DNA from: an uncultured Gemmiger sp.
GTDB lineage: Bacteria > Bacillota > Clostridia > Oscillospirales > Ruminococcaceae
Assembly (NCBI GenBank): GCA_944382835.1
Contig: CALWNP010000009.1
Span: 1 to 64,000 of the forward strand
Reading direction: 5' to 3'
DNA: 64,000 nt
The position numbers were made by a program, and so were the translations under genes. The notes below the pieces were generated by a model. It searched no databases and had not been told where the DNA came from. It worked only from the letters and a program-made list of their open reading frames with translations. This document shows, in pieces, positions 49,999-51,665 of this stretch (positions within the stretch are counted from its first letter, which is position 1; every line of letters begins with the position of its first letter).

Positions 49999-50094
49999 GA
50001 TACACCGAACAAATTCATTATACCACATCCGTCAATGTACTTTCCAGTCTGAATATGTACAAATAATTCCTTATTTCTTTGGCCGGATTGCGAA

Positions 50095-50123
50095 TGGACA
50101 CCGCCTAAGGGCCGTGATATAGT
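50095..50123 (+). promoter_or_regulatory. Promoter of the 1.5-kb non-coding transcript
   Basis: TGGACA (50095-50100) and TATAGT (50118-50123) have a 17-base spacer, so transcription should start near 50130. It lies about 100 bases past the argS terminator, and no protein gene follows on this strand. Confidence 0.75.
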
Positions 50124-50129
50124 ATAGTC

Positions 50130-51665
50130 ACAGAAAGAAAACCGCCGGAGATAAGGAACCACAAAAGGTTCCAAGGAAAGACCACTTTCAATAGAATCGG
50201 TAAAGGCACAACAAAACCTCGATTCGACAGCTTGAAGGAGATCTTCCGAAGTTTCCGAAAAACGAAACAATCGGTATTCTGATCCGGAAAGAAAATCCAA
50301 AGGGATTTTGCAAAGGATGAAGGAAAATTTTGAAAATGCTTGAACATCTAAAGTAAGAAGCCCCGTAAGGTTTCCGAAAAAGAAGTTCGGAATTGGAAAA
50401 GAGATTCTTTCATAACCGGTAAAATTCAAAGATTTTCCCAAAGGGCAGCAGGCAGATGGTTTTGAAAGGGGAAACAAAGATCGGCAGGTTTGGAACGAGA
50501 ATCCAAAGGATTCATCCGCAGATTCTGCAAAGTACGAAATCCTTTTCAGGGTTTCCGAAACGGGAAAAAGCAAATGGATCAAAAAGAGGATCGGGACATT
50601 CCGCAAGAATCTTTGAAGAACCAAAAAATCCAAAAGCAGGCTGACAAAAGGTTGAAAATCATCTGAGGAAGAAATTTCTGAAGAAAGAAAATCGAAATTC
50701 GTTGGAAAGGAAAGATGGAAAGGGTTTCTTGTAAGAGAAATCAAAGGAAATCTTTCAAACTGGAAATCATTCAGAAGCACTTCGAGAACTCCGAAAAGAA
50801 TTTGTTGGAAGGCCACCGAATAAACTTGAAAGACGTGTAAAGGTCAAGCCGGCAGGATTCGCAGGGAAGGAGGCTCAGACCCATGGCAAACTTTAAAGAT
50901 CCCATTCATCACCGGCGGGCCTGGGCCTGCTGAGGCGAAAGAACCACATCAAAGCCGCAGGTCGTAACCTGTACAAGAGCAAAAGTTCATTGATGGTAAG
51001 GTTCTAACAAATACCAAGATGCAGACCCAGGGGCCGCCAATCCGATCCCCAGCATAAATATAGATAAGATGCAGCGATCCAAAAAAAGCGATCTGGCAAC
51101 CGTAAAAGCCATCGATAATAAGAGGTCGTAACCCATGGTTCTAATGGAGCATGAGACGCCACCGAATGGCGTATGATTCGGCACACATCTTATCCACAAG
51201 GAGTTACTCCAATGTACAACGAGTAAGAGGAAAGTTTTCCTCGGCATCATCCCCATAAACCCATCTCGCAGAGAATCGACCGATCCCCTTTCACAGAAGC
51301 AAGTTGTTATGGCAAATCTTCATCCGTCGAACACTTCTCGGGTATGAGATCCAAGAGACCCACTCCCAGACCCAGTAAGTCGTAAGGTATCAAGTTTCCT
51401 GGCATATCAGAAGTTTCGGTCCCACGAATGAATCCCATTTACCAGAACAGTCCGAGCAGATCATGAATCCCGGGATTCGCAAATGTTTCTTCTGGCGAAA
51501 TCTAAAAGAAAGGTAATCACAAAAGTTTTCAGATTGAGGTACCTCATGAAAATGAGCAGACAGTCCGAAAAATAGTGACCATGGGTTATGAGGCTATGAC
51601 TCCAATCAAGTAAGACCGCCCCGGCACCGGAAGTTCTGGTGCCGGGGCTTTTGTCTGTCTTTTTC
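50130..51665 (+). ncRNA. Candidate giant structured non-coding RNA
   Basis: Roughly 1.5 kb between argS and a phosphoesterase gene has its own promoter and a strong terminator but no credible protein gene. Composition changes sharply: the first 700 bases are purine-rich and clearly lower in GC than the window. Perfect hairpins recur, several with A-rich loops: GGAACC/GGTTCC (50155-50172), AAAATCC/GGATTTT (50292-50309), TTCCGAA/TTCGGAA (near 50371-50392) and GAATCC/GGATTC (50499-50513). Later come CAGGTCGTAACCTG (50958-50971), GGTCGTAACC again (51124-51133), CGCCA/TGGCG (51157-51171), GGAG/CTCC (51200-51210), GAGGAAA/TTTCCTC (51227-51242) and TGAGGTACCTCA (51535-51546). I cannot assign it to OLE, GOLLD, ROOL, RNase P, tmRNA or a group II intron. 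A decayed gene is the main alternative. Confidence 0.65.
51618..51665 (+). terminator. Terminator of the non-coding transcript
   Basis: GCCCCGGCACC pairs perfectly with GGTGCCGGGGC around a nine-base loop and is followed by TTTTGTCTGTCTTTTT. The T-run is only on the plus strand, so it ends transcription coming from the left, that is from the 50.1-51.6 kb unit. Confidence 0.9.

What the first reader, a model, noticed from the sequence alone, without database searches (positions are those of the whole stretch)
50095..51665. An independent 1.5-kb transcription unit with no protein gene: candidate giant structured non-coding RNA
Seen: a promoter with 17-base spacer (TGGACA/TATAGT), about 1.5 kb of DNA with no ribosome-bound open frame on either strand, then a strong plus-strand terminator. 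The argS terminator lies before it, so it is not a trailer. Composition breaks from the GC-rich surroundings. At least ten short perfect hairpins are visible, four of them with A-rich loops (CC-AAA-GG pattern) in the purine-rich first half, and the hairpin GGTCGTAACC occurs twice in the second half. Established: bacteria have rare very large structured RNAs (OLE, GOLLD, ROOL, HEARO) that are typically free-standing transcripts. Inference: this is such an RNA, longer than those families, possibly new. No homologue could be checked.
Basis: partly seen in the sequence, partly recalled or inferred. Interest (0 to 1): 0.93.

Follow-up and report, generated by a model that had tools for sequence, protein, structure and literature searches.

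The report
Stand-alone RNA of tiny reading frames
A gut-bacterium DNA stretch that looked empty of genes turns out to be a conserved stand-alone unit, predicted to be copied into one RNA, that carries a row of very short reading frames (2 to 16 codons) instead of a protein gene, and it likely works by engaging ribosomes rather than by making a protein.

Summary
The unit is real and conserved: DNA matches in 33 of 35 genomes of its genus (Gemmiger; 19 of 19 good-quality ones), and relatives of varying completeness in six further genera of the family. No Rfam family matches. It is not noncoding. All 47 transcripts read carry a 15-16 codon ORF1 and at least one 'minigene' of 2-4 codons (AUG-UAC-stop and variants), each with a Shine-Dalgarno (SD) site. 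A five-codon M[TSK]Px* ORF just before the terminator is kept in 46, an ORF ending SEK/TEK* in 31. Main evidence: at the AUG-UAC site all 25 distinct Gemmiger sequences stop within 4 codons in frame 0, against 3 and 5 of 25 in the other frames; stop codons interchange repeatedly, with one clear loss. Amino-acid constraint is clear only for ORF1 within the genus, so the likely working principle is ribosome engagement, not peptides. In 21 of 29 wide loci the unit follows argS. Seven paper searches showed no free-standing minigene array; supplementary tables could not be read. Expression, translation and effect are untested.

The parts
50089..50123 (+). Promoter with conserved upstream box TGCGAATGGAC, -35-like TGGACA (50095-50100) and -10 TATAGT (50118-50123)
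   Evidence: Found by the scan; TGCGAATrGAC and TATAGTATAG nearly invariant in the genus; one match in the own genome; recurs in other genera
50130..50172 (+). Predicted transcript start region and conserved 5' end AAAGAAAACnGCCGGAGATAAGGA with hairpin 50155-50172
   Evidence: Invariant columns in A3 (23 of 31 distinct sequences used); one hairpin position changes on both sides in 7 of 23 sequences. The start site is predicted, not mapped
50190..50830 (+). Lineage-specific purine-rich, hairpin-rich expansion domain
   Evidence: Mostly does not align with relatives; equivalent stretch 112-658 nt in the 29 loci listed, shorter ones not listed
50867..50873 (+). SD of ORF1 (AAGGAGG)
   Evidence: Sequence; predicted pairing with the 16S tail -12.3 kcal/mol
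50883..50933 (+). ORF1, MANFKDPIHHRRAWAC*
   Evidence: amino-acid constraint in the genus P=0.003
50913..50932 (+). Hairpin at the end of ORF1
   Evidence: Helix 4: 99.1% of cells paired, changes on one side only
50958..50971 (+). Hairpin CAGGTCGTAACCTG
   Evidence: Helix 5: 4 of 6 pairs with a change on both sides, each in one sequence (L029, L030 or L055)
51135..51176 (+). ORF2, MVLMEHETPPNGV*, SD GAGGT at 51122-51126
   Evidence: PPN-type ORF in 24 of 47 transcripts by a loose pattern, 19 of them with an SD; at least one (L019) is probably a chance match
51198..51203 (+). SD of ORF3 (AAGGAG)
   Evidence: -11.2 kcal/mol
51212..51226 (+). ORF3 minigene, MYNE* (two codons, MY*, in many relatives)
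   Evidence: AUG-UAC site in 35 of 35 Gemmiger loci, stop within 4 codons in all
51227..51242 (+). Hairpin directly after the ORF3 stop
   Evidence: GAGG...CCUC-like pairing seen in several relatives (the listing was cut)
51546..51575 (+). ORF5, MKMSRQSEK*, SD GAGGT at 51536-51540
   Evidence...SEK*/TEK* ORF in 31 of 47 transcripts, stops TAA 16, TAG 11, TGA 4
51596..51613 (+). ORF6, MTPIK*, ending 5 bases before the terminator stem
   Evidence: 46 of 47 transcripts keep a 5-codon ORF here, stops TAA 30, TAG 12, TGA 4; SD by the call's rule in 30 of 46, not in this genome
51618..51654 (+). Intrinsic terminator
   Evidence: a stem of changing sequence plus T-run follows ORF6 in nearly all of the 35 loci printed (L057 lacks the T-run)

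Best explanation
This is a free-standing gene whose predicted transcript carries an array of conserved tiny open reading frames (2 to 16 codons) but no protein gene, and it likely works by engaging ribosomes rather than through the peptides. Shown by sequence comparison: a conserved dedicated promoter and terminator, several SD-AUG-stop units per transcript in five genera (g1, g13, g32, g81, g110), exchange of the three stop codons, and clear amino-acid constraint in ORF1 only. Inferred: ribosomes load on the SD sites, make 2-16 codons and terminate, over and over. The RNA would thereby tie up initiating ribosomes and shed short peptidyl-tRNAs, acting in trans as a brake on, or gauge of, translation; the ribosomes would also shield it from RNases. 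Its place behind argS, and often ahead of metG, fits a translation-related role but does not prove it.
For: Conservation: 33 of 35 genus genomes; 3'-end model R1 matches 19 of 396 family genomes in 5 genera (R1 was built from four of them, g110 and five more g81 genomes are new); promoter pattern 20 of 396 genomes, reversed control 3 of 396. ORF1 and at least one SD-preceded unit of 2-4 codons in 47 of 47 transcripts. ORF3: 25 of 25 distinct sequences stop within 4 codons in frame 0, 3 and 5 of 25 in frames +1 and +2; the 35 sites all have an SD. CCnATG sites: 132 of 163 have an SD (33% of other ATGs), and 131 of the 132 open frames of at most 16 codons, against 61 and 83 of 132 in frames +1 and +2. 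Stop states on the 35-locus tree: parsimony changes ORF1 2, ORF3 8, ORF5 4 (one is a non-stop in L016), ORF6 6 (one is the loss in L014). SD pairing medians: ORF1 -12.8, minigenes -11.1, other ATGs -4.9 kcal/mol. Eight of nine clade alignments show ORF1 and a minigene in all rows (45 of 47 transcripts used). Known minigenes act by translation or ribosome binding: mRNA shielding, effects on a downstream cistron, toxicity on overexpression (passages of PMC8708949).
Against: No expression, ribosome profiling or phenotype data. Codon tests are not significant for ORF2, for ORF5, or for ORF1 outside Gemmiger and across genera; for ORF6 only the synonymous measure is (P=0.006, stop codon included; BLOSUM 0.42). 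SD pairing is weak for ORF6 (median -5.8), ORF5 (-7.2) and ORF2 (-7.9). The minigene list, and so its energy median, was selected for SD, CCn and shortness. At CCnATG sites the excess of frames of at most 4 codons is modest: 71 of 132 against 48 and 43 in the other frames. SD regions are not predicted to be unusually open, rather the reverse for ORF1. One Gemmiger subclade of 8 shows only ORF1 and the minigene in the SD screen, though seven of the eight keep ORF6. Rows are related, so counts are not independent; the tree was built from the same alignment. Eight protein-gene starts of the window pair at -2.9 to -14.2, so these SD sites are strong but not unique.
Confidence: 0.45

Rival explanations
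1. A polycistronic micropeptide gene: the peptides, above all the 14-16 residue ORF1 product, are what the gene is for.
For: ORF1 in Gemmiger keeps amino acids better than column permutations (BLOSUM P=0.003, synonymous P=0.033). A [DET]-P-[AVI]-[QH] core recurs across genera and in g32 as MYHTEEPVQLVQGV.
Against: ORF2, ORF5 and ORF6 show no amino-acid constraint by BLOSUM; ORF1 is not significant in g13+g81 (P=0.62) or over three genera (P=0.11). Units of two codons with a changing second codon (MY, MI, MF, and MC in g57) are hard to see as products.
Confidence: 0.2
2. The RNA itself is the working part (a large structured RNA of the ROOL/OLE style) and the tiny ORFs only hold ribosomes that protect it or help it fold.
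For: Hairpin excess, folding z-scores -2.6 and -3.2, some two-sided changes, much non-ORF sequence. Ribosome shielding from RNase E is described in passages of PMC8708949.
Against: Much of the best-conserved sequence is ORFs with their SD sites; covariation is modest and rests on few sequences; large parts of the RNA do not align even within the genus.
Confidence: 0.2
3. A cis-acting leader or attenuator: translation of the short ORFs senses amino-acid supply and controls the next gene.
For: It lies after argS in 21 of 29 wide loci; metG lies downstream in 19 of 29; in 7 of 29 a racemase gene starts within about 310 bases on the same strand. ORF1 holds His-His-Arg-Arg codons in most Gemmiger.
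Against: A strong terminator ends the unit; the next gene in the window is on the opposite strand; in 6 of the 19 loci metG is on the opposite strand; 7 of 29 loci have neither argS nor metG nearby; the extra copies elsewhere in the genome keep ORF1 and the minigene.
Confidence: 0.1
4. A purely noncoding large structured RNA, the ORFs being accidental.
For: No ordinary protein gene; structure signal as above; SD regions not unusually open.
Against: Frame-specific stops at ORF3, repeated stop exchange and SD sites at all 47 ORF1 starts are not expected of a noncoding RNA.
Confidence: 0.05

Closest known systems
Two-codon minigenes in bacterial mRNA leaders (axe-txe mg2, EHEC LEE1; passages of PMC8708949)
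   Same: AUG-codon-stop units with an SD; two codons only; ribosome engagement rather than the peptide is thought to matter
   Different: Those are single units ahead of a protein cistron in cis; here several short ORFs sit on a transcript that has no protein cistron
Phage lambda bar minigenes (AUG AUA UAA; recalled, no call)
   Same: Tiny start-codon-stop ORFs; effect through peptidyl-tRNA drop-off
   Different: Phage-borne, not a conserved chromosomal array with further ORFs of 5-16 codons
Large structured bacterial RNAs ROOL, GOLLD, OLE, HEARO (features recalled; abstracts in the listing)
   Same: Long, free-standing, hairpin-rich transcript
   Different: No Rfam match; conserved blocks include ORFs with SD sites
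Dual-function RNAs and eukaryotic polycistronic micropeptide genes such as tarsal-less (recalled)
   Same: One RNA with several short ORFs, or ORF plus RNA function
   Different: Bacterial, ORFs down to two codons, start/stop layout rather than peptide kept

Membership tests
ROOL / GOLLD / OLE / HEARO and all other Rfam families | Covariance model match | tested here: not met
   0 matches at gathering in the window; in 14 loci (homologues and flanks) 7 matches up to E=1, none at its family's gathering score
tmRNA | Own genome's tmRNA is this locus | tested here: not met
   tmRNA is at G000:C20 (164.9 bits); none of the 8 matches lies in C9
RNase P RNA | Own genome's RNase P RNA is this locus | tested here: not met
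   Type A match at G000:C3 (150.5 bits, model positions 45-222); type B model no match
Bacterial minigene | AUG, one or few sense codons, stop, with SD | tested here: met
   71 such units of 2-4 codons, 48 of exactly two, in 47 of 47 transcripts; frame control
Bacterial minigene | Translation and cellular effect (toxicity, mRNA shielding) | not testable with these tools
   Needs ribosome profiling or reporter tests
Leader peptide / attenuator | Constant downstream gene on the same strand | tested here: not met
   Next gene in the window is on the opposite strand; no single same-strand downstream gene is constant over 29 loci, though racemase and metG recur
Micropeptide gene | Amino-acid sequence under purifying selection | tested here: inconclusive
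   Yes for ORF1 within the genus, no for ORF2 and ORF5; ORF6 by the synonymous measure only

The most novel reading that the evidence does not exclude
A dedicated gene whose product is translation itself: a free-standing RNA that offers ribosomes a string of start-stop sites, acting in trans as a sink or gauge for initiating ribosomes and short peptidyl-tRNAs in a family of common gut bacteria.
Probability: 0.3. Interest if true: 0.95.

Novelty: categorically new. Interest (0 to 1): 0.85.

Why it matters
The minigenes described in the passages I read are single units ahead of a protein gene. A conserved chromosomal transcript made of them would mean that cells keep genes for short rounds of translation as such. 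Both gene finders and RNA-family searches are likely to miss it: the ORFs are too short for the first, and too coding for the second. The compact forms of about 500 bases make it testable.

Tried and rejected
Rfam, gathering on the whole window and E-value mode on 14 loci: nothing credible. RNase P and tmRNA identities excluded. Phage and plasmid collections: no match. The first family DNA search matched 16 of 297 genomes: 5 of the genus and 11 others, of which four (G046, G086, G114, G163) are real; the other seven are short matches without the motif set. The 3' motif in IMG/VR gave 20 contigs, none with the core or AUG-UAC motif, so I take them as chance. Class-wide search with R1: only the own genome among 391, with stricter filters. 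Promoter hits in g61 and in one g32 genome run into a contig end; in g57 the first SD-preceded ORF has 28 codons and does not resemble ORF1, so g57 rests on the promoter and minigene-like units alone. The inverted repeat TCGTAACCCATGGT/ACCATGGGTTATGA is left unproven, since the fold pairs its second arm with ORF1. Idea that the SD sites are unusually accessible: not supported. Idea that all peptides are conserved as peptides: not supported. Longer SD-preceded ORFs in the purine-rich half (for example 62 codons at 50456) did not show up as conserved in the clade screen. Paper searches (listings with abstract starts, plus passages of PMC8040213, PMC11109978, PMC8708949) showed no such array; supplementary tables could not be read, so the 3161 candidates of PMC8040213 may include it.

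Full report
What was claimed and what is there. Promoter, terminator, the terminator-like hairpin after argS and the composition break are all present. Perfect hairpins with stems of 5 or more number 14, against 5.7 +/- 2.1 in 200 dinucleotide shuffles. The longer mechanically listed ORFs across the unit did not show up as conserved in the screen of relatives (+ strand only).

The unit is conserved. A DNA search of the 35 held genomes of the genus, the own one included, found it in 33, and in 19 of 19 that are at least 90% complete with at most 5% contamination (the two misses are 82% and 68% complete; in one hit, G002, the contig ends inside the unit). The own genome has one full copy; G007 has three and G015 two. 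The blocks that match in the genus are the promoter plus 5' end, a core around 50828-51074, a short block near 51186-51257 and the 3' end with terminator; the stretches between them vary, so 35 loci span about 535 to 1575 bases, promoter included. The purine-rich first half is one of these expansions.

Other genera. A sequence-only model of the 3' end, R1, was built from 32 of 41 available sequences of g1, g13, g53 and g81. It matched 19 of 396 family genomes in 5 genera, with g110 and five further g81 genomes as new finds, and in 391 genomes of the class only the own one. The loci read at those hits show the same layout; for g53 only the 3' end lies on the contig. Two genomes of g13 carry two complete copies in tandem, each with its own promoter. 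One g81 genome (G114) has an internal module twice. A promoter pattern, TGCGAATrGAC plus a -10, matched 20 of 396 family genomes, its reversed control 3. Among the 20 are three g32 genomes, which R1 had missed, with an ORF1 of the same kind (MYHTEEPVQLVQGV or ...GA) and, in the two complete enough, a MY unit; and one g57 genome with minigene-like units but a first ORF of 28 codons that does not resemble ORF1. A hit in g61 ends at a contig edge and shows nothing usable.

The conserved parts are tiny ORFs. I read 47 transcripts (35 Gemmiger, 12 others). ORF1 has 15 or 16 codons and an SD in the 44 that a pattern caught and in the three it missed (L026, L028, L055). Examples: MANFKDPIHHRRAWAC, MFSDTTPAQQRRLGYC, MVDMTPAQFGQTVGSR, MKIEEPVQFWQVCAD. 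All 47 also have at least one SD-preceded unit of 2-4 codons: AUG-UAC-stop in most, with MI, MF, MYN, MYR, MYS, MYT, MYNE, MYQS and others elsewhere, 19 different codon-and-stop combinations in all. Near the 3' end come M...SEK* or TEK* (31 of 47; 28 of the 31 with SD) and a five-codon M[TSK]P[IK]x* (46 of 47; 30 of the 46 with SD) that ends just before the terminator. Aligning each clade alone, 45 of 47 transcripts used, eight of nine groups show ORF1 and a minigene with SD in all rows; in the loose group of the own sequence with L024 and L021 only ORF1 and ORF5 line up.

Why these are not accidents. First, at the AUG-UAC site 35 of 35 Gemmiger loci (25 distinct 21-mers) stop within four codons in frame 0; the other frames do so in 3 and 5 of 25. 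The stop is reached in different ways: UAG or UAA at codon 3, UGA or UAG at codon 4, UAA at codon 5. Second, on a tree of the 35 loci (built from the same alignment) the stop states change by parsimony at least 2 times in ORF1, 8 in ORF3, 4 in ORF5 and 6 in ORF6. One of the ORF6 changes is a true loss (L014); one of the ORF5 changes is a non-stop in L016, whose clade lacks ORF5, so it may be a stray match; ORF5 was scored in 24 of 35 loci. Third, CCnATG sites carry an SD in 132 of 163 cases against 33% of other ATGs, and 131 of the 132 open frames of at most 16 codons, against 61 and 83 in frames +1 and +2; for at most 4 codons the contrast is smaller, 71 against 48 and 43. Fourth, predicted pairing with the 16S tail has medians of -12.8 (ORF1) and -11.1 (minigenes) kcal/mol against -4.9 at 569 other ATGs, but only -7.9, -7.2 and -5.8 for ORF2, ORF5 and ORF6. 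The minigene list was selected for SD and shortness, so its own count and median are not tests; rows are related and not independent.

What speaks against a peptide function. Column permutations, stop codon included, show amino-acid constraint for ORF1 within Gemmiger (BLOSUM P=0.003, synonymous 0.033). ORF5 (0.83, 0.76), ORF2 (0.29, 0.36), ORF1 in g13+g81 (0.62, 0.92) and ORF1 over three genera (0.11, 0.75) show none; ORF6 shows it by synonymous fraction only (0.006; BLOSUM 0.42). So what is kept is mainly where a ribosome would start and stop.

Structure. In a core alignment of 29 of 34 distinct sequences, five helices pair in 97.6% of cells and 5 of 26 pairs change on both sides, against 0.9 in shuffles (0 of 500 reach 5); sliding the partners by -1 gives 4 pairs and 11 such cells, against 8 observed. 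Four of the five lie in the hairpin 50958-50971, each from a single sequence among L029, L030 and L055, and L056 breaks one pair. The 5' hairpin has one covarying position, changed on both sides in 7 of 23 sequences. The SD of ORF1 overlaps a helix, GGCU with AGCC, that encloses ORF1. SD regions are not predicted to be more open than the rest of the transcript (ORF1 at the 24th percentile, minigenes at the 40th); minigene start codons are somewhat more open (68th).

Place in the genome. Of 30 wide stretches fetched, one held no complete transcript and was dropped. In 21 of the other 29, argS lies directly upstream on the same strand, as in the window; metG lies downstream in 19, in 6 of them on the opposite strand; a racemase gene starts within about 310 bases downstream on the same strand in 7; 7 have neither argS nor metG. 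The window's own order is argS, this unit, a phosphoesterase gene on the other strand, an Asp/Glu racemase gene and metG; Pfam supports all four names.

How it may work. Inferred, not shown: the RNA is made from its own promoter, ribosomes load on its SD sites, translate a few codons and stop, again and again. Published minigenes shield mRNA, affect a downstream cistron, or are toxic when overexpressed, with strength depending on the second codon and the SD (passages of PMC8708949). With no protein cistron here, an effect in trans on ribosomes or peptidyl-tRNA is the reading I commit to, at 0.45 for the whole statement; I hold the array of conserved tiny ORFs itself as much more certain. The rivals are a micropeptide gene, a structured RNA merely shielded by ribosomes, a leader element, and a noncoding RNA.

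Novelty. Not an Rfam family, not RNase P or tmRNA, no match in phage or plasmid records, and nothing alike in the listings of seven paper searches. Supplementary tables could not be read.

Noticed in passing
L035 1036-2360 and L041 (minus strand): In genus g13 the whole unit is duplicated in tandem, each copy with its own promoter and its own ORF1 variant.
   Followed up: partly
L032 960-1450: In G114 an internal module with minigenes (MY, MF) is repeated, about 260 bases apart, showing how the array can grow.
   Followed up: partly
L054, L055, L056 (G007 and G015): Additional, shorter copies of the unit at sites away from argS and metG in Gemmiger formicilis genomes.
   Followed up: partly
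50089-50099 and loci: The box TGCGAATrGAC upstream of the -10 is conserved across genera and occurs with this spacing once in the own genome, which suggests a dedicated regulator or an unusual -35 region.
   Followed up: partly
51120-51137: The second GGTCGTAACC hairpin covers the SD and the bases before the start of ORF2 and could shut it.
   Followed up: no
L108-L112 near the short ORF ending VFE/IFE*: In genus g81 the start sites of these ORFs contain GTGATCC-like stretches that would pair with most of the free 3' tail of 16S rRNA (median -17.3 kcal/mol, 5 loci).
   Followed up: partly
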